Positions 2,560-16,904 of a stretch of 64,000 bases of DNA are shown one piece after another. The notes under the pieces were generated by a model that saw only the letters and a program-made list of their open reading frames with translations, did not search any database and was not told where the DNA came from. How positions within the stretch are numbered: position 1 is the stretch's first letter; each line of letters opens with the position of its first letter. Made by a program: the position numbers and the translations under genes. Source of the stretch: a virus; the IMG/VR virus record IMGVR_UViG_3300025276_000026, positions 33,369-97,368 of that record; one strand, given 5' to 3'.

Positions 2560-5047
2560 CAAAAAACGCATCAAGCGACGCAACTGGTTCAACATTCCAG
2601 CCAATCTTCTCAATAACCACCTTCAATGGTTCTATGAATGACTTGTCAAATTGCATGTCGTAGTTGATATATTTGTGTAATTCCAACTCTCTCGGAAGTA
2701 CATTCAAGAACGATATGACGTTCTCGTTAATTGGGTTAGGTGTTGTGAGGTATGTGAAGTGTAACTTCTCTCCACTCTTAATCAACTCGTAACGTTTGTG
2801 TATGTTCTTCTTCTTGAGATGATGGTTGTAAAGTAAAGCACCGCGTACGTGTATGGGTGTACCCTTTCCGTAAATCATCGATGGGTCTGCATACTGTTGT
2901 AGATTGTTGCAACCTCTTGGTGATGACATGTCTTCGGGTGGTAACCTTCTGAAGTCCATACGAGCATTCTCTACGAAATCCCATAGTTCTTGTTCGTCAC
3001 CTTGCATCACAATCTTGAATGCATCCGTAAGTCTACCTCTAACCCATTGTGGTGTACTAGACTTTGCAGTCTCAATACCCATCATCTTGAGTTTAGGTAC
3101 GGCTAGTCGGACTCCTTCGTTGTCGATGACGTTGAGGATATATCTTTTCTTTGCTGTCCATATTCCTCTGTCGGCGATGACCTCTCGTCCCATCTCCATT
3201 TTTTGTTCGTATGCGTTGGTGTATTCTGCAAGGTCTTCGAAACCTTTTTCAAGAACGCTCTCCATGTGTGACTTGGCGATGGAGTCGATGAAGTTAGTGA
3301 TTTTGGTTTTATCTGTTTCATTGGGCATGACCTGTTGTATCAATTTGTCTAGTGTAATATAAACAGAATCAGTATCCATTGCAACAACATAATCTTCGTC
3401 TGTCTTTAGAGTTGTGTTTAACCAATCATTGATTGTCTTCTCTGCATGTTTGATAATCAACTGACCCGACAATGTGATTGCCTCGGCAAGTTGTGGGTCA
3501 AAGAATGCAAAGTATTGATTGGCCAATGCACCATAAGCTGAGTTAAGTGCAATCTTTCTAACCTGTTGGTTATTGTAAGAACGTTTGATTAATGTATTGA
3601 GTTCGTTCTTACGTGTCTTGTCTTTACAAGTTTGCAGTTCCTTCTGATACTCAATCATCTTACCCTTCCACATCTTACGTTCGTCATAGAACTTCTGCAT
3701 AAGTTCGGGAAGGAAACCTTGTTTGTCGTTAGAGAACCTAGCACCGTTTGGTGTGATACCGAATGCACCGTCAACTACTGTTTCTTTGTTGAATAGTTTC
3801 TCTACGGATGTATCTGTTAGTCCTCTCTGCATCTTCTCGGGTGAGATGTTGTACTGCATAATGATGTGAGGATACAGTGAGTTTAAATCGAATGAGACAA
3901 CCCATTCATGTTTACCCACGATAGGTTCTTTAACATATGCACCTTGAATCCTGTCACCTTTTATCTGACCAAGTCTCTGAGGTGGTGTAGCAATGTTCTG
4001 TTCTTTAAGGAAGTTGTAGATGATTGTTTCCCAATACTTAACCATACCAAATGTATCATTGTAGTTACATTTTGCATTGTAAGACATTGCAAGAATCAAT
4101 TCCATCAATCCTAGTTTGTCTTCTAAGTCTTCTACCAAGGTAACATCCTTTACATTATATGCAAGGAACTTAGAATAGTTGTTTCTGTATAGATGGTGAA
4201 GAGAACCTTCCTCTTCATAGCTTATCTTGGTCTTACCTAACTCTACCTTTGCAATATGGTCTAGTCTGTAAGACTCTTGGTTTACGAATGTATGTTTTTT
4301 GTATAGTTCTAGGTAATCAATTACATTGATTCCGTACAGATTAAAAACCTGTTGCTGAGAACCCCAATTGGTTTTGAATTCTCTGACATCGCACATGTTC
4401 CATGGTGAGAACTTTTTGTGTGATTCTGTACCAAAGACTCTGTCCACACGATTACACAAATAAGTAATGTCAAAAGTATTAACATTCCAACCTGTGATGA
4501 TATCGAACTTCTCTTTTCTCCAGTACTTGATAAACTGTTCAAGTAAGTCTTTTTCATCCTGTGCTTCATGATAAGTCACATTCGCTGGTTTTTCATCCCA
4601 TGGGCCGATACCAAAAGTATGTGCCATGAATCTGAAGGGTTTGATTGTTATTGCATTGACCTTTTCCAAAGCTTGCATAGGTTCGGGGAACCCATCTTCA
4701 CATTCACACTCAATGTCGAGTGTTGCAATCTTGATTACTTTGGGGTCGTATTTGATGTCACCTTGAAACTTGTCGGCAATGTAGGTGTAGATATATCTAT
4801 CATAACCATGAATGTCCATTCCAGCAGTTCCTGCGAACTTCTCTCGGAACTTCCTTGCACCACCCATTGAATTTAGGTTCACTGGTTCTAGGTTTCTACC
4901 ATCCAATGACTTGAATGCAGAGTCCTTTTTAGTCGGGACGTAATGAGTTGGACGGTAATCCACAGACATTTGCACCTGTTTCTTACCTTGGTAACCCTTT
5001 ACGAGTATCTTGTCGCGTGTACGACATACGTTTGTATAAAAATCCAT
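2555..5047 (-). CDS. 43: DNA polymerase gp43 (family B)
   Basis: Replicative polymerase with proofreading exonuclease, 830 aa (T4: 898). Exonuclease motifs: DIECE at 111-115, GWNVNTFDITYL, and YNVKDVTLV. Polymerase motifs: FDLNSLYPHIIMQYN (motif A), KIALNSAYGALANQY (motif B) and VAMDTDSVYI (motif C). All catalytic aspartates are present and the gene is uninterrupted by intron or intein. A TATAAT box ends 6 bases before the ATG at 5047 with no Shine-Dalgarno, so the mRNA may be leaderless. It works with the clamp and clamp loader at 18936-21389. Confidence 0.97.
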   Translation of the reverse strand: MDFYTNVCRTRDKILVKGYQGKKQVQMSVDYRPTHYVPTKKDSAFKSLDGRNLEPVNLNSMGGARKFREKFAGTAGMDIHGYDRYIYTYIADKFQGDIKYDPKVIKIATLDIECECEDGFPEPMQALEKVNAITIKPFRFMAHTFGIGPWDEKPANVTYHEAQDEKDLLEQFIKYWRKEKFDIITGWNVNTFDITYLCNRVDRVFGTESHKKFSPWNMCDVREFKTNWGSQQQVFNLYGINVIDYLELYKKHTFVNQESYRLDHIAKVELGKTKISYEEEGSLHHLYRNNYSKFLAYNVKDVTLVEDLEDKLGLMELILAMSYNAKCNYNDTFGMVKYWETIIYNFLKEQNIATPPQRLGQIKGDRIQGAYVKEPIVGKHEWVVSFDLNSLYPHIIMQYNISPEKMQRGLTDTSVEKLFNKETVVDGAFGITPNGARFSNDKQGFLPELMQKFYDERKMWKGKMIEYQKELQTCKDKTRKNELNTLIKRSYNNQQVRKIALNSAYGALANQYFAFFDPQLAEAITLSGQLIIKHAEKTINDWLNTTLKTDEDYVVAMDTDSVYITLDKLIQQVMPNETDKTKITNFIDSIAKSHMESVLEKGFEDLAEYTNAYEQKMEMGREVIADRGIWTAKKRYILNVIDNEGVRLAVPKLKMMGIETAKSSTPQWVRGRLTDAFKIVMQGDEQELWDFVENARMDFRRLPPEDMSSPRGCNNLQQYADPSMIYGKGTPIHVRGALLYNHHLKKKNIHKRYELIKSGEKLHFTYLTTPNPINENVISFLNVLPRELELHKYINYDMQFDKSFIEPLKVVIEKIGWNVEPVASLDAFFG

Positions 5048-5053
5048 ACTGTT

Positions 5054-5082
5054 ATTATAACAGAAAAAGGATTATTCTACAA
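5054..5082 (-). promoter_or_regulatory. Early promoter for gp43
   Basis: The minus strand reads TTGTAG (5077-5082), 17 bases, TATAAT (5054-5059), 6 bases, ATG of gp43. The -35 element overlaps the stop codon of the upstream gene. Confidence 0.55.
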
Positions 5083-5293
5083 GTGTATTTCTAGAGGGAT
5101 TCAGTAATTCTTTTACTGCTTTGAGTTTGTCCTGTGCATCGGCTAAGTTAGCGACCAATTCATCAACAGCACCAACGACATCGGGATGTTCTCCGATACC
5201 GACTGGGTTTTGCTGATAGACTGAGATGTTTGCAGTATGAACTGCAATATCACCTTGGTACTTCTTTTCTAATGCTCTTAATATATCTGCCAT
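5072..5293 (-). CDS. Small helical protein of unknown function, 73 aa
   Basis: Not recognised. It begins MADILRALEKKYQGDI and has a predicted helical C-terminal half (VVGAVDELVANLADAQDKL), probably a short coiled coil. It lies just upstream of gp43 and one base from the preceding gene, so it belongs to the same operon. Short conserved unknowns at this place are common in marine T4-like phages. Confidence 0.65.
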   Translation of the reverse strand: MADILRALEKKYQGDIAVHTANISVYQQNPVGIGEHPDVVGAVDELVANLADAQDKLKAVKELLNPSRNTLVE

Positions 5294-5294
5294 T

Positions 5295-5561
5295 CTACTT
5301 ATTGCCTGTTAGAACCTTGAAATTTTGTGCAAGATTTGGTCTTGGTTCAAATGCAGCTACTACTCTGACTTTTTTAATGTTAAAGGTATAATCCTTTGCA
5401 TAAGGTATCCATGGTGCAAGACCTACTTCCATATTGGTTCCCTTTAATTCTACGATACATGCGTGTGCTTCTTTTACTGTATAACTAGTTACGTTTTCGG
5501 AAACTAAACCTATTACAACATCGCCATTTTCTAGACGTAAACACTTTATAATTTCAGACAC
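5295..5561 (-). CDS. Small beta-rich protein, possibly Sm-like, 88 aa
   Basis: The translation reads (GTG)SEIIKCLRLENGDVVIGLV..., then VELKGTNMEVGLAPWIPYAKD. The pattern (I+xLxxGxxVIGxV, then a hydrophobic strand, then a Pro/Tyr-rich turn before IxxxxV) matches the larger protein at 33635-34090, suggesting a paralogous pair with an Sm-like small barrel. The GTG start overlaps the stop of the lysozyme gene in GTGTCTGA. Function is not known; RNA binding would be a guess from fold only. Confidence 0.6.
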   Translation of the reverse strand: MSEIIKCLRLENGDVVIGLVSENVTSYTVKEAHACIVELKGTNMEVGLAPWIPYAKDYTFNIKKVRVVAAFEPRPNLAQNFKVLTGNK

Positions 5562-6009
5562 TTCTTACTTGCTCCTGTAATTCGAGAGAACGTCTCCCAA
5601 CTTGTTTAAACCATCGAGAGTCTTCCATCTCAACAGCCATTCCTTCCCAATTCTCCGATACAACTGCTTTCCACATGTTGTTAAATTTACCAAAACGACT
5701 TCCACCTAAGTTGAATGTCATGTTAACCAATACGTGTTGTATTGCTTCGGGTAGACTATAGAAGTCCTTCCCACCTTTTGATTCAAATACATGGATAGTT
5801 TCATCTACATGCTTGTCAAAATCAGATTCGTAATACGCATCTACTGTTGATTGACTAACTGGAGTTCCAGCTGGTTTACCTTGTTCTGCATCACCATCTT
5901 TAATAAGATGACCAACACCTAGTGTTAGATAACCTAATGAGTCTGCATAGACTTCAAGGACTTCACCTTCATGTCTTTTAATTTGTTCTTTTAATATTTC
6001 TTTATTCAT
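5554..6009 (-). CDS. e: T4-type lysozyme (endolysin, GH24)
   Basis: Cleaves the beta-1,4 bond between MurNAc and GlcNAc in peptidoglycan at the end of infection. The catalytic triad of T4 lysozyme is present with matching spacing: E14 in RHEGE, D23 in YADSLG, T29 in LTLGVGHL (T4: E11, D20, T26). The 151 aa length is close to T4's 164. There is no signal peptide, so release needs a holin; several small membrane proteins in this window are candidates. It overlaps both neighbours by 8 bases. Confidence 0.93.
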   Translation of the reverse strand: MNKEILKEQIKRHEGEVLEVYADSLGYLTLGVGHLIKDGDAEQGKPAGTPVSQSTVDAYYESDFDKHVDETIHVFESKGGKDFYSLPEAIQHVLVNMTFNLGGSRFGKFNNMWKAVVSENWEGMAVEMEDSRWFKQVGRRSLELQEQVRSV

Positions 6010-6310
6010 CCTGTTCCTGTTCCCTTTTCAATTGTTCATCCACGAGTTCCATCAAAATGTCACCCATGAGGTCGTTTAATTCACTATTATTTAGGAGTTC
6101 CTCAAGTCCAATATCTGTCTTTTGTTGACCGTGAGGGAACCTTCTTATAGTTCTTTGGAAATTAATGTTGGGTTTTCCATCTTCGAATTGTAACTTACCA
6201 TATTGGTATACAAGTCCGTCCCATTCTCCACCTGTCATCTCGATAGCAGCGTCGTTTTCACTTGGATTCTCGACTACCATGTAGACTTTGTTATCGAATA
6301 ATTTTGGCAT
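6002..6310 (-). CDS. Conserved hypothetical protein, 102 aa
   Basis: Not recognised. It begins MPKLFDNKVYMVVENP, has a beta-rich first half (EWDGLVYQYGKLQFEDG, INFQRTIRRFP) and an acidic helical C-terminus (LMGDILMELVDEQLKREQE). It sits between the P-loop kinase (20-base overlap) and lysozyme (8-base overlap), so its expression is coupled to both. It could belong to the upstream modification cassette, but nothing in the sequence shows this. Confidence 0.65.
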   Translation of the reverse strand: MPKLFDNKVYMVVENPSENDAAIEMTGGEWDGLVYQYGKLQFEDGKPNINFQRTIRRFPHGQQKTDIGLEELLNNSELNDLMGDILMELVDEQLKREQEQDE

Positions 6311-6827
6311 GTATTTCCTCTTCGATTCTCATAGAATCATGTATAGAATTGTTATCATGTATATTTAGTTGTCCTAAAAGATTCATGTTTGTTAGTATGT
6401 TATTTATCTGTGTTCGTCTTCCCTTCAGCCATACTTCTGATTGTGTGTCTCCACGTTCTGCGTGACGATTGTGTTCTTCGGTTATGTCTACTGTTAGAAC
6501 GTAAACTAATGCTTCGTGATTTTGCATTAACCATTCTATGTCTACTCCTCTAAAGTATCTATCACCTTCTATTAGAACATGTTTGTAGGCAATGTTTGCC
6601 CACTCAATGAATTCTCTAAATTGTGGTATAGAACCGTGAGAGAGCTTATCAGTTCCACCGAATGTCTCTCCCTCGGGATATTGACCGACTACTAATATGT
6701 CACCATGTTCTTGGCACTTAAATAGTTTCATCGGTTCAATTAGGTTGGGTTCATCTAACCTAGAGATAAGTCTTCTCATGAGAGTTGACTTTCCCGAACA
6801 TGGAACTCCACCAACCATGATAATCAT
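6291..6827 (-). CDS. P-loop nucleotide/polynucleotide kinase-like protein
   Basis: 178 aa with Walker A GVPCSGKST at residues 7-15 immediately after the first strand (MIIMVG), a candidate second motif HVLIEGDRYFRG and a basic lid-like segment (WLKGRRTQINN). This is the small P-loop kinase layout. It starts in a 4-base overlap with the ParB-like gene, downstream of a TET-like dioxygenase and a cytosine methyltransferase. Known phage hypermodification pathways use P-loop kinases that phosphorylate hydroxymethylated bases within DNA. By inference it may phosphorylate 5-hydroxymethylcytosine in DNA. An ordinary nucleotide kinase or tRNA/RNA repair kinase is the alternative. Confidence 0.75.
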   Translation of the reverse strand: MIIMVGGVPCSGKSTLMRRLISRLDEPNLIEPMKLFKCQEHGDILVVGQYPEGETFGGTDKLSHGSIPQFREFIEWANIAYKHVLIEGDRYFRGVDIEWLMQNHEALVYVLTVDITEEHNRHAERGDTQSEVWLKGRRTQINNILTNMNLLGQLNIHDNNSIHDSMRIEEEIHAKIIR

Positions 6828-7822
6828 ACTGAACTACCGTCCAAGTTGACTACCACATCTTCCAGTGGAAGACCATCATTAAGAGGGTCTGCTGTAGTAA
6901 TCTGACCTATGAATCCTCTGAATTCAAAGATGTGATGATACTTTCTATTAAGATGCTGGGTTACCCACAACATAGTTCTGTCAAAAGAATCCATCCAGTT
7001 ACTTCTTTGGTCTGCAATTTTTGAAGGGTCTACATTTAAAATGTAACCATAGATTTGAACTGGTACTAAGTACGTATCATACAAATCTATCATCTGTTTT
7101 ATTTTAGTTCCAAAGTCCCCATTTGGTCTTGCAAAACCTATCTGCTGTAAGTCAAGAACATACCCTTTCGATGGGAATTGATTCTCAGCAAGAATCCTGT
7201 TTGCAACTCCAGCGTCTACATCTATCACATTTTCAAATACAGAAAGACTTGACCTAAATCTATTAAAGATTGCAGTCCTTTGTGCTGGTGACTTTGTTGG
7301 GGTCATATCTTTTAATCTATCCTTCAAATAAGAAGTGTTATCTCTTGTACAAGAACCTTGGGCTACAAGTATCTTTAAAGCTTTAACATAGTCTTTGTCA
7401 TCATTATCCTGTGCTGGTAAATGACATTCATTGGATTGAATCATAAACATGATTTCATTAGCTGGTGTATCAAAAGTTACAACATCTACTATGACCATAG
7501 TTTGCTCAAGTTCTGTAAATGCTTCTAGTCTATTGAAACCTGCTTTCAGATAGTACTTTTCATCTGCACCAAGTTCGACTACCAATGGTGGTTCTGAATA
7601 GACCCAACCTAGGTTTTGAAATGAATCTACTAACTTAAGAACGTTTGCTCTTAAATGGTTGTAGACTCTAATGTTTAAAGATGGGCCTTTCTTTACAGAA
7701 TGTATGATATCTTCAAGTGGGATTAGTTTCCTAGTGGTGAAGTTTACACCTTTAGGATACTTTGGTTTACACTCTTTGAGTGACCTATTCACGTCGAATA
7801 GGATTTGATTATTGTTTGACAT
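6824..7822 (-). CDS. ParB-like protein
   Basis: 332 aa. The N-terminal half has a ParB/sulfiredoxin-type core: VYSEPPLVVELGADEKYYL followed by KAGFNRLEAFTEL, matching the ParB box where a GxxR motif binds nucleotide. The C-terminal 200 residues are helical and not recognised. It has its own Shine-Dalgarno (GGAG, 9 bases before ATG). ParB-type domains recur in phage base-modification operons beside kinases and oxygenases, which is the context here. In vitro some ParB-like proteins hydrolyse CTP or act as nucleases; which applies is unknown. Confidence 0.65.
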   Translation of the reverse strand: MSNNNQILFDVNRSLKECKPKYPKGVNFTTRKLIPLEDIIHSVKKGPSLNIRVYNHLRANVLKLVDSFQNLGWVYSEPPLVVELGADEKYYLKAGFNRLEAFTELEQTMVIVDVVTFDTPANEIMFMIQSNECHLPAQDNDDKDYVKALKILVAQGSCTRDNTSYLKDRLKDMTPTKSPAQRTAIFNRFRSSLSVFENVIDVDAGVANRILAENQFPSKGYVLDLQQIGFARPNGDFGTKIKQMIDLYDTYLVPVQIYGYILNVDPSKIADQRSNWMDSFDRTMLWVTQHLNRKYHHIFEFRGFIGQITTADPLNDGLPLEDVVVNLDGSSV

Positions 7823-7858
7823 AGTTGTTCTCCATAGTCGTTAGTTTGGAACGACACC

Positions 7859-7889
7859 CATAAAAAAGGGTCTCTTTTTTATTTCAAGT
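7859..7889 (+). terminator. Weak hairpin with T-run between the ParB-like and dioxygenase genes
   Basis: ACCC and GGGT arms around an AT-rich loop, then TCTCTTTTTT on the plus strand. The T-run follows only in plus orientation, although all local genes are on the minus strand. It may block antisense transcription or simply mark the operon break. Confidence 0.3.
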
Positions 7890-7911
7890 GTAACTCCACT
7901 ATTATTTAGGT

Positions 7912-8913
7912 CTAAAAGAAACTGTCCAGTGAACCTTTGTCTTCATACTTTCCAGCATGAGGGCCGATAGGGTTCTCTGTCTTTCCAGCTCTTCCTTTAG
8001 TTGCAACATGTTCATCACAATATGCAACACATGATAACCTTACTCCTTCACCAGTGATAGGGGTAACACCGTGCAATTCATTTGAATCTGCAATCAGTAC
8101 GTCTCCATCATCTGCTTCAATAGCAATACCATATCTAGGGAAACATAAGTATGCACCCCCAAATTCTCCAATACGGAAGACACACATAGTTGTCATTCCG
8201 AACTCTAAATCTTTACCATCCAAATGTGCAGACATCTTTACAGTGCCACCAGTTGAATACTTGTTTGCAGATAACGCTGTCATCGGTGAACCACCAATGT
8301 GATACTTCTCATCTATACACTCATCTGCAAAAGTTTTTTGTAAGTTGTATACTTCGGGAACTGCACTCTTCAATGCTTCTTCATTGACGTTTGCAATCTG
8401 TGATAAGGTTTCAAACTTTTCTGCGTTAGATTTCTTTTGCATCCAACCACTTGCCTTAATCATTCCTGTGAATCTGCCACGTTTATACCCGATTAGAACT
8501 GAATGAATCTCGTTTGCTTCTGCAATACGATTGAACTCACCATTCTTCTTTAGTGGGTAATAACTGTTAGGTGTTCTTAGGACATAGTCCTTACCTTCGA
8601 TTAATCCTTTTGCCTTCATATCTTCGTGGTCGATAGGCCCGGCTGCATTTGCTCTCATTGTAGATGTATCATCGATAGAGAACAAAGTATCTTTAACTGT
8701 TTGGTAAGTCTTACCTTTGTATGCATTCTTTACAATACATGCAAGTAAGGTTTCACCCATAAGAGTACCATGTGGTTTATAGATTTTGATAACATCACCA
8801 TCATATTCGATAGATGATATAACAGTATCATAGGAATCTTCGGTAAGATATTTACCGTTCCACTCTTTGAAGGTTTCTTTAAACCCTAAGTCTTTTGTTG
8901 CAGTGAATTCCAT
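7912..8913 (-). CDS. TET/JBP-like 2OG-Fe(II) dioxygenase (putative 5-methylcytosine hydroxylase)
   Basis: 333 aa. The C-terminal part has the double-stranded beta-helix signature: HLD (H230, D232), a GGAYLCFPRYGIAIEADDGD segment, distal H281 in ELHGVTP, and R292 in GVRLSC that would bind 2-oxoglutarate. The GGxxLxxPxYG...GDVLIxxSxELHGxxP pattern is that of TET/JBP enzymes, which oxidise the methyl group of modified bases in DNA. The gene directly follows, and overlaps by 28 bases, a C5 cytosine methyltransferase, so the likely reaction is 5mC to 5hmC. ATG at 8913 was chosen over the upstream TTG. Confidence 0.85.
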   Translation of the reverse strand: MEFTATKDLGFKETFKEWNGKYLTEDSYDTVISSIEYDGDVIKIYKPHGTLMGETLLACIVKNAYKGKTYQTVKDTLFSIDDTSTMRANAAGPIDHEDMKAKGLIEGKDYVLRTPNSYYPLKKNGEFNRIAEANEIHSVLIGYKRGRFTGMIKASGWMQKKSNAEKFETLSQIANVNEEALKSAVPEVYNLQKTFADECIDEKYHIGGSPMTALSANKYSTGGTVKMSAHLDGKDLEFGMTTMCVFRIGEFGGAYLCFPRYGIAIEADDGDVLIADSNELHGVTPITGEGVRLSCVAYCDEHVATKGRAGKTENPIGPHAGKYEDKGSLDSFF

Positions 8914-10160
8914 GGTTCTATTATTTGTCCTTTTATGCTTTGAACGAGGTAGTATAAACAAAGTGGTGCAACCATCAATCCGATTCTTGCTCCCTTGTCG
9001 TCATAATCACCTGTCATTTTATAATCATTAGGTAAAGTCATTATCCTTACCATTTCTTGAGGTGTATAAATTCTTTTACCACCATGGTGGAAATGATTAC
9101 CACCCATAAACTTTGGTTGACACCCTGCTTCAGTCAATGAATGAGCTGGAAGATGTTTAGGAACGATTCTTGACATGTAGTAAGAATGTTTCTCATCTTC
9201 GGGTTTGATATGTCCAAGTCTAATGTTCTCTTGGAACCATGGTTTTACGATATGGTCTCCGATAGATGTATATGCTTGGTTCTCTCTTTCTTTAAGTACA
9301 GGGGTGAGTCCAAGACATGGAGTACACTCTGCAAATTCTTCCTTTGGGTGTACATCAAATCCATTTACCCAATGTCCTTTGGAAGATTCATCCATTGCAG
9401 TTTCTAAATAAGCTGCATCAATAATGTTCTGTTCGTCTGTTTCTAAATCGTGAATTGCATCTTCAATGGATGCAAATTCTTTTACTGGGTCGGGGAAAAC
9501 TGAAGACATGCACATCCAAGGCATTCCAATTCCTTCTAGTACATCATCACGTACACCAACCATGAATACTCTTTCTCTCTTCTGAGGTACACCATGCTGA
9601 TGTCCCTTCATAACTTTCCAAGTCACTGAGTATCCTAGTGCTTCGAAGTCGTTTACCATCCTGTTTAGATGGTCTCTTGCATAGTCCATTGAAAGACCCT
9701 TCACGTTCTCACATATTATAACTTTAGGCATTAACCCTTCGGCAATCCTAATCATTTCCCATGTAAGGTCTTCAATGTTCTGTTGCTTCATACCATAAGC
9801 CATCTTCTCTTTGTTCCAACCTTCTTTCTTGGAACCTGCCATAGAAAATGGTGGACAAGGTGGTGACCCATCCATGATATCTAATTCGTATTTCTTAAGT
9901 CCACTAAGCTCCATGATACCTTCTGCAGTGACTTCTTTGATGTCTCTACATTCGTGTACTGTGTTAGGGAAGTTTTCTAGGTAGGTGTCAACATGTAACT
10001 GTTGGAACTCGTTCATGTAACGAACGTCACCACCTGCTAGTTTGTAACCACATGAAGAACCCCCACCACCAGCAAAGAAAGTAATGTAATTAAACTGTTT
10101 ACTTTCACTGTTACGGTGAAGGTCTTCTAGGTTGTATTGAAAATATTTATTATCACTCAT
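8886..10160 (-). CDS. dcm: DNA (cytosine-5-)-methyltransferase
   Basis: About 424 aa with the ordered C5-MTase motifs: I (TFFAGGGGSSCGYKL, SAM binding), IV (DGSPPCPPFS with catalytic C102), VI (CENVKGL, E151), VIII (QKRERVFMVG) and a C-terminal motif X-like region (RIGLMVAPLCLYYLV). The target-recognition region lies between VIII and GGNHFHHGG. No restriction enzyme neighbours it, so it is not an R-M pair; its partner is the overlapping TET-like gene. The ATG at 10160 is chosen because GGAG lies 6 bases before it, and the upstream ATG at 10172 sits inside the -10 box. Confidence 0.95.
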   Translation of the reverse strand: MSDNKYFQYNLEDLHRNSESKQFNYITFFAGGGGSSCGYKLAGGDVRYMNEFQQLHVDTYLENFPNTVHECRDIKEVTAEGIMELSGLKKYELDIMDGSPPCPPFSMAGSKKEGWNKEKMAYGMKQQNIEDLTWEMIRIAEGLMPKVIICENVKGLSMDYARDHLNRMVNDFEALGYSVTWKVMKGHQHGVPQKRERVFMVGVRDDVLEGIGMPWMCMSSVFPDPVKEFASIEDAIHDLETDEQNIIDAAYLETAMDESSKGHWVNGFDVHPKEEFAECTPCLGLTPVLKERENQAYTSIGDHIVKPWFQENIRLGHIKPEDEKHSYYMSRIVPKHLPAHSLTEAGCQPKFMGGNHFHHGGKRIYTPQEMVRIMTLPNDYKMTGDYDDKGARIGLMVAPLCLYYLVQSIKGQIIEPWNSLQQKT

Positions 10161-10170
10161 CATAGACTCC

Positions 10171-10200
10171 ATTATACTATATTTAGCACAACTCTGTCAA
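10171..10200 (-). promoter_or_regulatory. Strong early promoter for the methyltransferase operon
   Basis: The minus strand reads TTGACA (10195-10200), an 18-base spacer, then TATAAT (10171-10176). Both hexamers are perfect consensus, so the modification cassette should be expressed early and strongly. Confidence 0.8.
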
Positions 10201-10208
10201 GGCGATTT

Positions 10209-10733
10209 CTAAAGATTTTTCAATATATTTTCAGGGCTTGAAACTTCATAAGGGTCGGACTCTGCATTATCAGTGTATCCTTCTTCAATGAATGCTTTTT
10301 CAATTACACCATCGTTAACAACGACTGCATATCTCCAAGACCTATATCCGAAACCAAGATTTGATTTAGAACATTCTGCACCAATCAAATGTGTGAACTC
10401 ACCATTACCATCGGGTAGTGGGTAAACATTCTTGATACCTAATGATTCAAACCATGTGTTCATAACGAATGTATCGTTAACTGAAACACAATAAATCTCA
10501 TCGATTCCTTTTGCTCTGAACTCTTCGAATTTCTCTTCAAAGCCAGGCAGTTGTTGTGTAGAACATGTTGGTGTGAATGCGCCAGGCAATCCAAATATGA
10601 TTACTCTTTTACCAGCAAACTGTTCTTTAGTGTCTAGTGATACAAACTCACCGTCAATTCTCTGAGGTATAATTACTTCGGGAACTGTTGTAGTCCCTTC
10701 GATAATTTCTAATCCCATTGTTACTTCTGTCAT
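10209..10733 (-). CDS. Peroxiredoxin (Prx5-type)
   Basis: 174 aa thiol peroxidase. The peroxidatic motif is PGAFTPTC with T54 and C57, and the later GYRSWRYAVVV supplies the conserved arginine. It would reduce H2O2 or alkyl peroxides in the host cytoplasm. There is no fused glutaredoxin domain, so it depends on host thiols. It has its own promoter and a Shine-Dalgarno (GGAG, 8 bases before ATG). Carried as a single gene beside Hsp20, it looks like a stress-protection gene taken from a host. Confidence 0.9.
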   Translation of the reverse strand: MTEVTMGLEIIEGTTTVPEVIIPQRIDGEFVSLDTKEQFAGKRVIIFGLPGAFTPTCSTQQLPGFEEKFEEFRAKGIDEIYCVSVNDTFVMNTWFESLGIKNVYPLPDGNGEFTHLIGAECSKSNLGFGYRSWRYAVVVNDGVIEKAFIEEGYTDNAESDPYEVSSPENILKNL

Positions 10734-10764
10734 AATCTATACTCCATAATAAATAGATACACCC

Positions 10765-10793
10765 ATTGTAACATCAATGAGTATATCTTTCAA
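10765..10793 (-). promoter_or_regulatory. Promoter for the peroxiredoxin gene
   Basis: The minus strand reads TTGAAA (10788-10793), 17 bases, TACAAT (10765-10770), about 30 bases before the start codon. Confidence 0.6.
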
Positions 10794-10802
10794 GGGGGTT
10801 TC

Positions 10803-11240
10803 TTAAGAAATTTTGATTTCTTGAGGTTTATCTTCTTCGGGTATAATCCTTTCTAAAGACACACTCAAAATACCATTCTTCATGTCTGCACCTTTAACGA
10901 CAATGTCGTCTGCAAGTGTGAATGTTCTTTTGAATGAACGAGATGCAAGTCCTCTATGGACATACTCAAGTTCTTCTCCACCCTTTTGTTTACCTTCGAT
11001 AAGAAGTACATTTTTCTCTTTTGAGATTGTGATATCTTTCTTATCAAATCCAGCCAGTGCAAGTTCGATACTGAAGTTCTCTGCATCGTGTTTTACAATA
11101 TTGTAAGGTGGATAGTTTGTATTAGTCGGTGACTGATTGGCACGTTCTAATAGTTGAAGAGTTCTGTCGAACCCGATTGCGAATGGGAATTCTTTCCCGA
11201 AATTGAAGATGTCGAAATCTCCGAGCTGTTTACTTGTCAT
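10803..11240 (-). CDS. hsp20: Small heat-shock protein (Hsp20/IbpA-like)
   Basis: 145 aa alpha-crystallin-domain chaperone. YPPYNIVKHDAENFSIELAL starts the domain, followed by AGFDKKDITISKEKNVLLIEG and the characteristic RGLASRSFKRTFTLADDI; the C-terminus has the IxI-like tail QEIKIS. It would hold unfolded phage or host proteins. Hsp20 is a signature gene of marine T4-like phages. GGAG precedes the ATG, and a perfect TATAAATA late box lies about 60 bases upstream. Confidence 0.92.
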   Translation of the reverse strand: MTSKQLGDFDIFNFGKEFPFAIGFDRTLQLLERANQSPTNTNYPPYNIVKHDAENFSIELALAGFDKKDITISKEKNVLLIEGKQKGGEELEYVHRGLASRSFKRTFTLADDIVVKGADMKNGILSVSLERIIPEEDKPQEIKIS

Positions 11241-11299
11241 AGTGTTTCTCCTTTATTAAGCAAGTTATGTTATGTAACCCCTAATGGGCATTACAATAG

Positions 11300-11307
11300 T
11301 ATTTATA
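11300..11307 (-). promoter_or_regulatory. Late promoter for hsp20
   Basis: Perfect TATAAATA on the minus strand in the gap between the cyclase and hsp20, leaving a 5' leader of about 50 bases with a Shine-Dalgarno. Confidence 0.65.
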
Positions 11308-11334
11308 GCATATATGGGGACGAATTTAAAAACT

Positions 11335-13212
11335 TCAAGTCTTTTTAAGTAATCTAGTTTTACCATCGAATAATGGTGCATAGATTTTGACTGGTATCTC
11401 CTTACCTTTAACCTTGATTTCGTCGATGAACTTCCAGTCAATATCGATTTGGTCTTTGGTAAACTCTGAGAATAGAATTGGAGTATCGTATTGTCTAGTC
11501 TGAACTTCAAGTCTGGCTGCAAGGTTGACTGCATCACCGACCACTGAGTAATCGAACCTAAGTTCTGACCCCATATTACCTACGATACATGGGCCTGTGT
11601 TGACCCCTGTGCCGATTACAACTGGTGGTAGGTCTAATCCTTCCTCTACAATATCCTTATTCATCTGTTCAGTAAGTATCTCTATTTCCATTGCAGTTCT
11701 GATAGCCATCTCTGCATGGTTCGGACAATCCAAAGGAGCATTCCAAAATGCCATTAGACAATCGCCCATATATTTGTCGACGGTTCCACCGTTCTTGATT
11801 ACTATCTTAGTCATACCATCGAGGAATCTATTGATGAGTAGGACTAATCCCTCGGGGTCATCGTTTTTCATGTAAGCTTCACTGATTGGAGTGAATCCTA
11901 CGATGTCTGCGAAGAGGAATGAAAGTTCCTTTCTGTCTCCACCTAATCGTAATTTAGAGGGGTCTTTTTGTAGCTCTTCAATCATGTCGGGAGATAAATA
12001 CTTTTGGAACTGCTTCTTGATTTGTTGCTTTTCTTGGAAAGTCACATAGTATTTGTTAAACGAAGCATGACCGAAAACTACTAAGGAGGCCAACGATGAA
12101 AAGAAGGTATCGAAAAGAACGAGCTCTGAAGTCCAAATATAATAACTCCCGCCAATCTGGCATACTACAAGTAATAGAAACCCTGTCCCCGAAAGAACTG
12201 TGGGAAGCTTGTAAACCATCGCAAGTATCATTAGCAAAACTATCAGAAGAAGAGCAGTCTCTAGTGATTCAAGATAGTAGGATTGTTGTATTTGAACTCC
12301 TGTCAAAACGGTTTGAAGCAGGTTCGCTTGCACTTCGTGGGGATACATTACACCCCTTGGGGTTGAAACTGGATTATTCAAACCCTCTGCGGTTAGACCC
12401 CATACAAGTATTTTATTCTCAACATTAGAATCGGGTAAGTCTACAGCAGAAATCCTTTGGAAAGTGTTCCAATAGGATATCATTACGTCACTGGTTGGAG
12501 TGGTGGTTATCGGTTTGTCTCTTCCCATCCGAACCCACTCCACTCCAGTCTCGGGTGTGATTCTAGTTTGATAACTTGGTTGTTCTCTAAGGGCTCTTAA
12601 AGCTTCTAACATTAGTGAGGGGTACACTTCACCGTTTGCCGTAACCAATAGTGGTACAGACCGCGTGGTACCGTCAAAATTGGGTGTTCCAGTGACCGCT
12701 GGGGTAGCCGTCACAACTCCAACTCCATAGGTGTTACTCATCAAAATTTCAATCGGACTAACAATCCCATCGAAGTTCCATAGAAAATCTTTAGGTTCCC
12801 CACCCCCAAACGTTGAGTTACCAACAAATGGTGCAGAACCTTTTTGAGTTTGTGAGGTTGGAGCAGCTCCGAGTATTGTGAGACGGTTTACTAATCCTTC
12901 TGCGAATACCGCGTCTTGTGTTGGGTCTCTATCGGGTTTTGAAAATAGCATACCAAAAATATGAGTGTTGCTATAATGGGTATTAAGAAGCAAGTCACGA
13001 TAAATCCCACGACGAATAGGATACTGTCCGTAAGTTTCAAGAGATTTTTCGTCAATGTCGACGAGAATGATGTTATCGACATAGAATTCTTCCTGTTGTT
13101 GGTGTAAGTAATCGAACCATGACCATGATATGTTCTCTATAAAATATGGGTTCCATATCTTAAGTGCAAAGAGAGCTAGTATAGTTACTAATACTGTTTT
13201 CCAAGTATACAT
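11335..13212 (-). CDS. CHASE2-domain class III adenylate/guanylate cyclase
   Basis: 625 aa membrane sensor cyclase. Order: N-terminal TM (residues 6-20), extracytoplasmic CHASE2 domain (IILVDIDEKSLETYGQYPI, RRGIYRDLL), three TM helices at roughly 320-390, then a cytoplasmic class III cyclase domain. The cyclase has the metal-binding Asp of FLFADIVGFT, the second Asp in DKYMGDCLMAF, and the C-terminal catalytic segment DYSVVGDAVNLAARLE, so it looks active. It directly follows the curlin-like gene in the same operon, with a FecR-like gene nearby; CHASE2 cyclases and FecR proteins often neighbour each other in bacteria. It would make cAMP in response to an outside signal. Confidence 0.93.
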   Translation of the reverse strand: MYTWKTVLVTILALFALKIWNPYFIENISWSWFDYLHQQQEEFYVDNIILVDIDEKSLETYGQYPIRRGIYRDLLLNTHYSNTHIFGMLFSKPDRDPTQDAVFAEGLVNRLTILGAAPTSQTQKGSAPFVGNSTFGGGEPKDFLWNFDGIVSPIEILMSNTYGVGVVTATPAVTGTPNFDGTTRSVPLLVTANGEVYPSLMLEALRALREQPSYQTRITPETGVEWVRMGRDKPITTTPTSDVMISYWNTFQRISAVDLPDSNVENKILVWGLTAEGLNNPVSTPRGVMYPHEVQANLLQTVLTGVQIQQSYYLESLETALLLIVLLMILAMVYKLPTVLSGTGFLLLVVCQIGGSYYIWTSELVLFDTFFSSLASLVVFGHASFNKYYVTFQEKQQIKKQFQKYLSPDMIEELQKDPSKLRLGGDRKELSFLFADIVGFTPISEAYMKNDDPEGLVLLINRFLDGMTKIVIKNGGTVDKYMGDCLMAFWNAPLDCPNHAEMAIRTAMEIEILTEQMNKDIVEEGLDLPPVVIGTGVNTGPCIVGNMGSELRFDYSVVGDAVNLAARLEVQTRQYDTPILFSEFTKDQIDIDWKFIDEIKVKGKEIPVKIYAPLFDGKTRLLKKT

Positions 13213-14178: not shown

Positions 14179-15318
14179 CTAGTTTGTTTGTGTGATGGTA
14201 ATATTTAGAGACGAACCATCACCCACCTGTATTGATGACTCTTTTTCGTCTGTTATGGTTCTAATGGATGCTTGTGCAAACATCGGTAACTTAATAGATA
14301 TAATTCCATTAACTTCCCTGTAGAACCATATTTGACCAAGACCCTTGTCTACAATAGTAGAATATTGTGTGTCTTTGTCAAAGCCTGGCAGAGTTCCGTC
14401 AATACGAACCACTCCGAAGGCATTAGATTGTTGTCTGTCGAGACCAACCTTACGGTCAATGTCTAAAACTACATCTAATAAATCTTGTAAGAAATCGACA
14501 TCAAGTAAATCTCTGTCGAGCTCTGTGTATTCTAACTCATCATCTTCAAAGTACTGTTCTTCCAAGTCATTAAACTCTAGGAAGTCCACGTCAAGAACGT
14601 TACTTGTATCGTTCTCTTTACTACTCTGTTCTTCTGCAACCTGTTTGTTCACCTCTTCGGGTGGACTGACAATGAATAAGTTGTCAATCAAGTTGGGTGT
14701 AATTCCATTAACCACTATTGGTTTAGTTGGTGAATCATCGTATGTAGAAACCATTGTTGCTTGATACGCTTCATCCAATAATACCTGTCCGCCTGCATTA
14801 CTAACTAGGATACTTCCCGAAGGAGCTCCCCATTTATCGGGTAGCAGTATCACAAGTGACCTTCCGATTTCATCAATAGATGTTGTGAAGTCGGTGCCGT
14901 TAACTGTTATCTGTGCAGTCGGTGTAGTTATATTTATGTTAGCTTTCTTAATCTTTCCACCAAAACCCGAAGCAAATCGAGCGGTGCCTTGTGCCATACG
15001 AATGGCCATCTTGGACTTTGAAGGGTCGGGGTCATAGTAAACCTCGTCTATCCATACCTTTGAATGTTCTGTTAAATCCAGTTGTTCCGTACCTTGGAAT
15101 TGGATTTTCATTCTGCCGTTCTGAGTCTGTGCTGTATCATACATCAGCACATCGGATTCATCTGTTGCAGATATCACGGAAGTTTCTCCGTCTCTCTGAA
15201 GACCAGCTGAACCCTTGTATTCGATAATCTGACCTATCGGTTCACCATATGATAGTGAACTGATAAGTAAGAGATTAACTATCGTTGTCGTCTTTCTGAA
15301 TAATGTCGATGTTAGCAT
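14179..15318 (-). CDS. FecR-domain periplasmic protein
   Basis: 379 aa. Signal peptide to about residue 25 (LLLISSLSYGEPIG), then a FecR domain: IGQIIEYKGSAGLQRDGE, LMYDTAQTQNGRMKIQFQ, IRMAQGTARFASG, ITTPTAQITVNGTDFT. Next come a very acidic linker (about residues 225-285) and a C-terminal domain ending SSLNITITQTN, which resembles the end of the adjacent curlin-like protein. It has no TM to contact a sigma factor, so it is not a classical FecR anti-sigma regulator. It may bind the curlins or the CHASE2 cyclase sensor. It overlaps the upstream curlin gene by 44 bases. Confidence 0.8.
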   Translation of the reverse strand: MLTSTLFRKTTTIVNLLLISSLSYGEPIGQIIEYKGSAGLQRDGETSVISATDESDVLMYDTAQTQNGRMKIQFQGTEQLDLTEHSKVWIDEVYYDPDPSKSKMAIRMAQGTARFASGFGGKIKKANINITTPTAQITVNGTDFTTSIDEIGRSLVILLPDKWGAPSGSILVSNAGGQVLLDEAYQATMVSTYDDSPTKPIVVNGITPNLIDNLFIVSPPEEVNKQVAEEQSSKENDTSNVLDVDFLEFNDLEEQYFEDDELEYTELDRDLLDVDFLQDLLDVVLDIDRKVGLDRQQSNAFGVVRIDGTLPGFDKDTQYSTIVDKGLGQIWFYREVNGIISIKLPMFAQASIRTITDEKESSIQVGDGSSLNITITQTN

Positions 15319-16006
15319 TAGAGGTCACAAATGATACGTCAATGATACCACTACAAGATTGACCACTCGGACAACTTGTATCTGAACCACTCTTCTGAAT
15401 GATATCAATATCATTGCCTGAACCAGTTAAGATTGCAGTGATTTTATTATCAGTCGCGTCAGCTTGAATGGTATTAATGTCGTTTGATGAACCACTTACA
15501 GTCCAGTTCCAAACAGCATTATCCGAATCAACTTTGGTTGTGAATACGTTACTTGAACCACCTACTACTAAGTCCCAGTTTAAGTATTCTGCTGATGCAG
15601 TGTAACCGACATCTATATCAAACGTGTTAGATGAACCTGTTACAGCACCTGCCATGTTTAAGTTGTCTGCACTACCTTGATAACCTATGTTCCAATCCAT
15701 TGAGTTCGAACCACCAGTAAATGTTAAATTTACTGTTGAACTATCTGCAATGAAAGGGCCGTATAGTTTGTTGACATCACCAAATTGTACTAGTGTGAAA
15801 CTGTTGTTTGCACCAGTAAGAATCATGTCAGCAGATGTTCCCGAGAAATTATCTAAACCGACTTTGTTTCCGTAACCTTTCTGAGTGAAGTTCAACGTTA
15901 GGGCTGTACCACTTTGTTGTAACCATATTTCGTTATCGTCTGCTCCTGCAAATGCAGTAGTCGATAATCCTAATGTTAACATAATCAATAATAATTTATT
16001 CTTCAT
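15275..16006 (-). CDS. Second curlin-like secreted protein
   Basis: 243 aa with a signal peptide ending TTAFA (about residue 20). The mature part has regularly spaced beta-strand repeats with S/N/G turns: NFTQKGYGNKVG, LTGANNSFTLVQFGDVN, FTGGSNSMDW, VTGSSNTFDI, VGGSSNVFTT, VSGSSNDINTIQ, LTGSGNDIDIIQ. The [TG]-G-[SA]-[SGN]-N turn with alternating hydrophobics is amyloid-like and less canonical than CsgA. It has a Shine-Dalgarno (AGGAG) and overlaps csgG by 11 bases, so secretion partner and substrate are co-translated. Confidence 0.78.
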   Translation of the reverse strand: MKNKLLLIMLTLGLSTTAFAGADDNEIWLQQSGTALTLNFTQKGYGNKVGLDNFSGTSADMILTGANNSFTLVQFGDVNKLYGPFIADSSTVNLTFTGGSNSMDWNIGYQGSADNLNMAGAVTGSSNTFDIDVGYTASAEYLNWDLVVGGSSNVFTTKVDSDNAVWNWTVSGSSNDINTIQADATDNKITAILTGSGNDIDIIQKSGSDTSCPSGQSCSGIIDVSFVTSNANIDIIQKDDNDS

Positions 16007-16904
16007 GTTTTTCTCCTATTGAATGTAACTCGTTTCTTCCATGTGTTCCATGGGGGTGACGATGTTCATCTTTAATTACCCAAAAACTTCTATCGTGTCC
16101 TTGGTATATTAGTTCTAGAACGGCAAGTTCAATTGCTGAACGTGTTGCTTTCGTAACACCTTCATTTTCTGCTCTGCCATCTTCCATTTCAATTAACTTC
16201 GTATCCATATCAACGAAGCGGAATACATCATAACCACCACCTGTACTTAGAATCGTTTTCTGAGTCTGTACATTCAGTAAAATCTCACCAGTTAAAGTTG
16301 ATATTCCTCTCAACGATACGGTGATAACATCCCTACGATATGAAATAGAACTGCCAATACCTAAGTATCTTGCGCCTCTTCCACCGCTTTCGATGTTCGA
16401 ATCATAACCAATAATCCCACCTTCCAGTAGGATTCCTGCGAAGAGCAAGGGTTGAATTCCTGTTGGGGAACCCTCATTACCTTCCTGTTCTGCAAAACTT
16501 TCTCTAGTAGAACGAATGATTTGACGCTCTCTTACTAGTGCATCTAAACTTGTTCTCTCTACTACTCTAAACCATTTACCCTTCCCTGCTGTCTTAAGTG
16601 CATCAATCAAAAATGATTCAGCTCCTTGTGTGACTGCAGTGGAGAAAGATGCAATTCCATCTTTACTCTTACGTTGTCCTGTCTTATCCATGAAAGCGTA
16701 GACTGCAACGACTGGCATTACATCTGCTGGTGGTAACAGTAACAACTCTTTATAAGTAGGTATATTTACTACTTCTGCCTTCTCAATGCACTCACCCACC
16801 TTACTCATTACAAGAGAGGTGCAACTGTCGGTCATAGACGGAATACTTGCACACCCAGTGGTGAACAAGACCGTTATCAGTCCTATAATTGCCCATTGCT
16901 TCAT
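15996..16904 (-). CDS. csgG: CsgG curli secretion channel lipoprotein
   Basis: 302 aa outer-membrane lipoprotein that forms the nonameric curli export pore. Lipobox FTTGC with C18. It has the family's characteristic segments: PVVAVYAFMDKTGQ, FSTAVTQGAESFLIDAL, WFRVVERTSLDALVRERQII, ILLEGGIIGYDSNIESGG, GARYLGIGSSISYRRD, ITVSLRGISTLTGEILLNVQ, and VFRFVDMDTKL. These align along the whole of E. coli CsgG. The insert before PLLFAGI and the His-rich C-terminus are extra. It is followed by its substrates and preceded by csgF. Confidence 0.95.
   Translation of the reverse strand: MKQWAIIGLITVLFTTGCASIPSMTDSCTSLVMSKVGECIEKAEVVNIPTYKELLLLPPADVMPVVAVYAFMDKTGQRKSKDGIASFSTAVTQGAESFLIDALKTAGKGKWFRVVERTSLDALVRERQIIRSTRESFAEQEGNEGSPTGIQPLLFAGILLEGGIIGYDSNIESGGRGARYLGIGSSISYRRDVITVSLRGISTLTGEILLNVQTQKTILSTGGGYDVFRFVDMDTKLIEMEDGRAENEGVTKATRSAIELAVLELIYQGHDRSFWVIKDEHRHPHGTHGRNELHSIGEKHEE

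What the first reader, a model, noticed from the sequence alone, without database searches (positions are those of the whole stretch)
6291..10160. Putative cytosine hypermodification cassette: C5-MTase, TET/JBP-like dioxygenase, ParB-like protein, P-loop kinase
Seen: four consecutive minus-strand genes behind a perfect-consensus promoter; the MTase and dioxygenase overlap by 28 bases, the ParB-like gene and the kinase by 4. Known: TET/JBP enzymes oxidise methyl groups of bases in DNA, and some phages pair such enzymes with C5-MTases and tailoring enzymes; P-loop kinases and ParB-like domains recur in base-hypermodification operons. Inference: the MTase makes 5mC, the dioxygenase makes 5hmC, the kinase phosphorylates it in DNA, and a further group may be added. 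Unlike T4, no nucleotide-level hydroxymethylase (gp42) is visible, so the route would be post-replicative and sequence-specific.
Basis: partly seen in the sequence, partly recalled or inferred. Interest (0 to 1): 0.9.

Follow-up and report, generated by a model that had tools for sequence, protein, structure and literature searches.

The report
Phage cytosine-modification operon with DNA kinase
A marine T4-like phage carries a small operon that probably methylates cytosines in its own DNA, oxidises the methyl group to hydroxymethyl, and then phosphorylates it, whereas close relatives carry sugar-adding enzymes in place of the kinase.

Summary
In detail: four minus-strand genes behind a real, conserved promoter. 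Profile searches place them as a C5-cytosine methyltransferase, a TET/JBP dioxygenase with all catalytic residues, a ParB-fold protein, and a P-loop kinase (Pfam Ploopntkinase3). In 80 viral loci sharing this TET gene, the slot after it holds either this kinase (58) or glycosyltransferases (16: TET-associated GT, T4-type DNA alpha-glucosyltransferase, GT8), never both. That points to kinase and sugar transferases competing for the same 5-hydroxymethyl group. In a distant branch (Caulobacter phage Cr30 and relatives) the same kinase family sits beside TET and amino acid:DNA transferase. No dCMP-hydroxymethylase-type enzyme, carboxy-SAM synthase, or amino acid:DNA transferase was found in the window record or relatives, including complete phage Melnitz. 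So the phosphate may be the end product, or be used by an unrecognised enzyme. The ParB-like gene is dispensable, recently transferred and fast-evolving, yet always directly abuts the kinase (28 of 28 distinct genes). MTase-TET-tailoring clusters are a known kind from work I recall; the kinase-terminated version is a variant. No chemistry has been measured.

The parts
10171..10200 (-). sigma70-type promoter TTGACA-18-TATAAT; -10 box ends 7-10 nt before the candidate ATGs at 10163 and 10160 (probable leaderless start)
   Evidence: 12/12 consensus; conserved in relatives including Melnitz, absent in the clade with a different upstream gene
8886..10160 (-). C5-cytosine DNA methyltransferase (SPPC motif; Leu at the CmoX R350 / HhaI N304 position)
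   Evidence: PF00145 7.3e-47; alignment A5; nearest solved structure 8YF3 = SpCmoX
7912..8913 (-). TET/JBP-family 2OG-Fe(II) dioxygenase; H230, D232, H281, R292 invariant
   Evidence: PF12851 9.5e-14; alignment A2 including Cr30
6824..7822 (-). ParB/sulfiredoxin-fold protein; exchangeable, mobile, fast-evolving gene that always precedes the kinase
   Evidence: AlphaFold model pLDDT 84, Foldseek to ParB/Noc/PadC, sulfiredoxin, SerK; turnover and transfer
6291..6827 (-). P-loop kinase, Ploopntkinase3 family; predicted to phosphorylate 5-hydroxymethylcytosine in DNA
   Evidence: PF18751 1.8e-7; model pTM 0.85, P-loop kinase fold; invariant Walker A, EGDR, R..D.Q.E motifs; context
6002..6310 (-). 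102-aa protein of unknown function overlapping the kinase by 20 nt; downstream operon neighbour, not assigned to the pathway
   Evidence: phrog_3998 7e-6; kept next to the kinase in most relatives of one clade

Best explanation
This is a post-replicative cytosine hypermodification operon of a marine T4-like (probably pelagimyophage-type) virus. The MTase makes 5-methylcytosine at a short motif, probably GpC. The TET enzyme oxidises it to 5-hydroxymethylcytosine in DNA. The P-loop kinase phosphorylates that hydroxyl with ATP, giving 5-(phosphonooxymethyl)cytosine, either as the final bulky, charged, restriction-blocking mark or as an activated intermediate for an unrecognised enzyme. Kinase and glycosyltransferases are alternative ways of capping the same 5hmC. 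The ParB-fold protein is an optional, rapidly exchanged partner of the kinase, perhaps for DNA or site targeting. Shown by computation: family membership, catalytic residues, conserved gene order, mutual exclusion, absence of alternative routes. Inferred: all chemistry, the GpC motif, the kinase substrate and the ParB role.
For: Families: PF00145, PF12851 and PF18751 all above curated cut-offs. TET H-x-D...H...R invariant in 13 diverged homologues. In 80 loci with this TET: 58 kinase, 16 glycosyltransferase, 0 both; GT-bearing records hold no kinase elsewhere beyond a partial P-loop hit, and kinase-bearing records hold no TAGT or AGT. The slot alternatives include PF11440 DNA alpha-glucosyltransferase (5.7e-74), whose T4 namesake acts on 5hmC in DNA, and PF20691 TET-associated GT. 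One KIN-to-GT swap is nested among TETs about 92% identical to the window's. Deep kinase homologues (hhalign 8.9e-42) sit beside TET and PF18724 amino acid:DNA transferase. No PF00303 in the record or relatives. Low dN/dS (0.07-0.22 in the close pairs) on MTase, TET and kinase. Phosphorylation of 5hmdU in DNA by a phage kinase is established and blocks many restriction enzymes (PMC7653180).
Against: No LC-MS or biochemical data. The MTase clade carries Leu where canonical C5-MTases have Asn and CmoX has Arg, so its cofactor pocket is unusual. The kinase fold also resembles nucleoside and NMP kinases. A few loci (L127, L208) have MTase and kinase with no TET between them. The deep AADT-associated branch shows no homologue of this MTase nearby, so its TET may act on thymine and its kinase on hmU. 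The window record (97 kb) is incomplete.
Confidence: 0.72

Rival explanations
1. The 'MTase' is a CmoX-type carboxymethyltransferase using carboxy-SAM, making 5-carboxymethylcytosine rather than 5mC.
For: Nearest solved structure is SpCmoX, 8YF3, E 7e-66; CmoX acts at GC motifs, and ParBc proteins co-occur with CmoX on contigs (PMC12783734).
Against: The defining Arg350 is Leu in the whole TET-linked clade; CmoX homologues from S-B43, S-CRM01 and TurkishDelight keep Arg. CmoA (TIGR00740) was not found in the record or relatives but was found in S-B43. A TET needs a methyl substrate.
Confidence: 0.06
2. The kinase is a nucleotide-level enzyme (for example a dNMP or hmdCMP salvage kinase) unrelated to modification of DNA.
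For: Foldseek hits include guanylate, cytidylate and nicotinamide riboside kinases.
Against: A salvage kinase would be expected in GT-type phages too, but it is excluded there. The family was not found in bacterial genomes and associates with TET/AADT. There is no nucleotide-level hydroxymethylase.
Confidence: 0.12
3. The kinase product is only an intermediate; an unrecognised transferase, possibly the ParB-like protein or a slot alternative, replaces the phosphate by an amine or other group, as AADT does in other phages.
For: In the deep branch the kinase pairs with AADT; all 28 distinct ParB-like genes lie directly before the kinase, mostly with a 4-nt overlap.
Against: 19 of 80 loci have the kinase with no slot gene; no AADT by profile in the record or relatives; hhalign finds no ParB/AADT similarity.
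Confidence: 0.35
4. The ParB-like slot gene is a free-standing homing-type or selfish gene inserted at the TET|kinase junction, with no role in modification.
For: Exact empty junctions, 16 slot changes on the TET tree, L014 (empty) and L015 (ParB) with identical TET proteins; raised identity in a tract spanning TET 3' end, ParB and kinase against L015; unrelated slot genes elsewhere, one ParB-like with a weak HNH match at its C-terminus.
Against: ParB-like genes were found only directly before the kinase, including away from TET (28/28); no nuclease motif was identified in the window protein; ParB-like genes also sit in other modification clusters (PMC12783734).
Confidence: 0.4

Closest known systems
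Phage MTase-TET-tailoring clusters (recalled from Burke et al. 2021 PNAS and Iyer et al. 2013 NAR; neither paper held here)
   Same: C5-MTase plus TET plus downstream tailoring genes; relatives of this locus carry the TAGT family named after them
   Different: here the tailoring slot holds a kinase and a ParB-fold protein, with no glycosyltransferase
Methylophilales phage Melnitz (MZ577096)
   Same: MTase (52%), TET (52%), kinase (54%) in the same order next to DNA polymerase; same promoter type
   Different: an unrelated 427-aa protein in the ParB slot; published only as a type II methylase plus hypotheticals (PMC9004378)
Caulobacter phage Cr30 and relatives: TET + kinase + amino acid:DNA transferase
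   Same: homologous kinase (30% identity) and TET
   Different: they carry AADT and, in Cr30, a PF00303 enzyme; no homologue of this C5-MTase was seen near the kinase
5hmdU DNA kinase pathway of thymidine-hypermodified phages (ViI, M6)
   Same: phosphorylation of a 5-hydroxymethylpyrimidine within DNA (PMC7653180)
   Different: a different kinase family (HMUDK_hel PF18723 not matched) and a different base
CmoX/CmoA/CmoY system of Synechococcus phage S-B43
   Same: related MTase fold; GC target there; ParBc neighbours noted
   Different: no Arg350, CmoA not found, and a TET is present

Membership tests
C5-cytosine methyltransferase | PF00145 domain with catalytic Pro-Cys, ENV and QxRxR motifs | tested here: met
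   SPPCPPFS, CENV, QKRERVF in the alignment
C5-cytosine methyltransferase | motif X Asn (HhaI N304) | tested here: not met
   Leu in the whole TET-linked clade; cofactor therefore uncertain
TET/JBP dioxygenase | PF12851 above cut-off with HxD...H...R | tested here: met
TET/JBP dioxygenase | oxidises 5mC in DNA | not testable with these tools
   needs an enzyme assay
Ploopntkinase3 P-loop kinases | PF18751 above cut-off, Walker A, P-loop kinase fold | tested here: met
Hydroxymethylpyrimidine DNA kinases | phosphorylates a 5-hydroxymethyl base in DNA | not testable with these tools
   only genomic association shown
5hmdU DNA kinase (ViI/M6 type) | HMUDK_hel PF18723 domain | tested here: inconclusive
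   no match in the record or relatives, but no control genome rang either
CmoX carboxymethyltransferase | Arg at position 350 contacting carboxy-SAM | tested here: not met
   Leu (definition from PMC12783734)
CmoX carboxymethyltransferase | CmoA encoded nearby | tested here: not met
   a positive hit in S-B43 shows the search works, though the window record is incomplete
ParB/sulfiredoxin fold | ParB_N fold | tested here: met
   Foldseek E 6e-6, probability 1.0; no PF02195 match by sequence
ParB/sulfiredoxin fold | CTPase motifs GERRxR and ENxxR | tested here: inconclusive
   GFNR conserved but without the Glu; the second motif is degenerate
T4-type nucleotide-level hydroxymethylation | dCMP hydroxymethylase (PF00303 superfamily) | tested here: not met

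The most novel reading that the evidence does not exclude
A phage genome whose end-product modified base is phosphorylated 5-hydroxymethylcytosine, a charged base phosphate made at the DNA level by MTase, TET and kinase, with an exchangeable ParB-fold partner that directs the kinase. Related phages switch between phosphate and sugar caps on the same 5hmC by swapping one gene slot.
Probability: 0.33. Interest if true: 0.8.

Novelty: new variant of a known kind. Interest (0 to 1): 0.64.

Why it matters
It predicts a cytosine modification that I found no report of in the library searched. It also gives a natural series of phages in which one slot decides whether 5hmC is phosphorylated or glycosylated, so host defences could be compared against caps on the same scaffold. 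Melnitz, a cultured phage, has the same MTase-TET-kinase set, so the prediction is testable at once by mass spectrometry. It also corrects misleading names: the kinase family is called 'terminase small subunit', TET 'SNF2 DNA repair protein', and GT8 genes of pelagimyophages have been assigned to LPS (PMC7029224) although some sit in this slot.

Tried and rejected
The CmoX reading was taken seriously after the 8YF3 hit and rejected on Arg350 and CmoA. AADT was sought by two profiles in the record and relatives: none. ParB versus AADT similarity: none. Homology of Melnitz gp7 and of the L072 slot protein to known domains: nothing in Pfam even at E 10; they look GIY-YIG-like by eye but this was not confirmed. 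A riboswitch or structured RNA in the 89-nt TET/ParB gap: z -1.1 and no Rfam match in 5000-12000. Kinase in bacterial genomes: none confirmed. One alignment had no stretch conserved enough to search with. GpC obs/exp (0.72) and CpG (0.66) do not identify the MTase motif. Burke 2021, Iyer 2013 and a third paper are not held in the library, so comparison with them rests on memory.

Full report
Four minus-strand genes lie at the stated coordinates with overlaps of 28 and 4 nt, behind TTGACA-18-TATAAT. The promoter is not chance: relatives whose MTases differ by 20% or more keep it, and Melnitz has a 12/12 copy with a 17-nt spacer. In the clade with an upstream peroxiredoxin the -10 box usually ends 6-9 nt before the ATG, so the MTase transcript is probably leaderless. 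In a second clade the MTase follows an upstream reading frame directly and the promoter is missing.

Family assignment. The MTase matches PF00145 (7e-47), the dioxygenase Tet_JBP PF12851 (9.5e-14, above cut-off), and the kinase Ploopntkinase3 PF18751 (above cut-off); the ParB-like protein has only weak PHROG matches. The TET metal and 2OG residues H230, D232, H281 and R292 are invariant in 13 homologues including Cr30. An AlphaFold model of the ParB-like protein (pLDDT 84) matches ParB, Noc and PadC, then sulfiredoxin and the free serine kinase SerK, so the fold call is right. The kinase model (pTM 0.85) is a P-loop kinase resembling nicotinamide riboside kinase, guanylate kinase, PSTK and chloramphenicol phosphotransferase.

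Origin. The window is 33369-97368 of a 97,368-bp IMG/VR record. It has a T4-type polymerase about 48% identical to cyanomyophages and a CsgG gene, a combination reported for pelagimyophages (PMC7029224). The host is inferred, not shown.

Natural swap experiment. Eighty IMG/VR loci share this TET at 49-100% identity. The MTase-TET pair is nearly constant; what follows is not. 58 loci carry the kinase, 16 carry glycosyltransferases (TAGT PF20691, DNA alpha-glucosyltransferase PF11440 at 5.7e-74, GT8), none carries both, and 6 carry neither detectably. Whole records of GT-type phages have no kinase elsewhere apart from one partial P-loop hit, and kinase-type records have no TAGT or AGT. On the TET tree kinase/GT changes three times, one of them inside the window's own clade; loci are related, so counts are not independent. 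Since the alternatives include an enzyme class that in T4 acts on 5hmC in DNA, the simplest reading is that the kinase uses that same hydroxyl.

Independent branch. A scan with the Cr30 kinase found 30 loci; in most of them a TET is on the same fragment and in 17 a homologue of the Cr30 AADT, often with overlapping genes, confirmed on examples as PF12851 and PF18724 'Amino acid:DNA transferase'. Profile comparison joins the two kinase branches (8.9e-42). That supports a role in phosphorylating hydroxymethyl bases in DNA. In the window's branch AADT was not found in the record, Melnitz or the other long records searched, hence the suggestion that phosphate may be terminal. The biochemical precedent is that phosphorylating 5hmdU in phage DNA increases restriction resistance (PMC7653180).

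Routes excluded. No thymidylate-synthase-superfamily enzyme was found in the record, five relatives or complete Melnitz, while Cr30 has one; so hydroxymethylation should be post-replicative. The MTase's nearest solved structure is the carboxymethyltransferase SpCmoX, but its essential Arg350 (PMC12783734) is Leu here and in the whole TET-linked clade, and CmoA was not found. The GpC prediction rests on CmoX's published GC motif and on my recollection of TET-linked phage MTases.

The ParB-like gene. It is absent in 19 loci where TET stop and kinase start lie within -4 to +1 nt. Slot type changes 16 times on the TET tree. Between window and L015 its synonymous divergence is 0.05 against 0.37-0.46 for TET and MTase, with 25 amino-acid-changing and 10 silent codons: recent transfer and fast evolution. 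Yet all 28 distinct genes directly precede the kinase, mostly with a 4-nt overlap, seven of them without a TET detected just upstream. So it looks like an exchangeable kinase partner or a selfish gene that exploits this junction; I cannot decide between these.

Verdict. A real operon, correctly read in outline. The MTase-TET-tailoring plan is a known kind; the kinase as alternative to glycosyltransferases, without AADT, and the ParB-kinase coupling are the new parts. All chemistry is inference.

Noticed in passing
11335-13212 (-), 14179-15318 (-), 15996-16904 (-): CHASE2-domain class III nucleotide cyclase, FecR-domain protein and CsgG close together. CsgG is reported for pelagimyophages (PMC7029224) but that text mentions neither CHASE2, FecR nor a cyclase.
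   Followed up: partly
8886-10160 (-): The TET-linked MTase clade has Leu at the near-universal motif X Asn and Pro after the catalytic Cys, positions lining the cofactor methyl pocket.
   Followed up: partly
L064:5868-6401, L065, L066, L069: A second, tandem kinase copy that keeps Walker A but has ECD in place of EGD[R].
   Followed up: partly
L208:3043-6164, L127:3457-6537: MTase and kinase operons with no TET gene between them.
   Followed up: no
L001:6269-7552, L072:8996-10273, L071:3426-3995, L128:4065-5549: Unrelated proteins in the slot before the kinase; by eye GIY-YIG-like, PD-(D/E)XK-like, and ParB-like with a weak C-terminal HNH match. Not confirmed.
   Followed up: partly
phrog_800, phrog_6059, Cr30 gp114 and gp129: Misleading database names: this kinase family as 'terminase small subunit', TET as 'SNF2 DNA repair protein' or queuine transferase.
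   Followed up: yes
10200-10160 (-): Probable leaderless promoter, -10 box 6-9 nt from the ATG in most relatives.
   Followed up: yes
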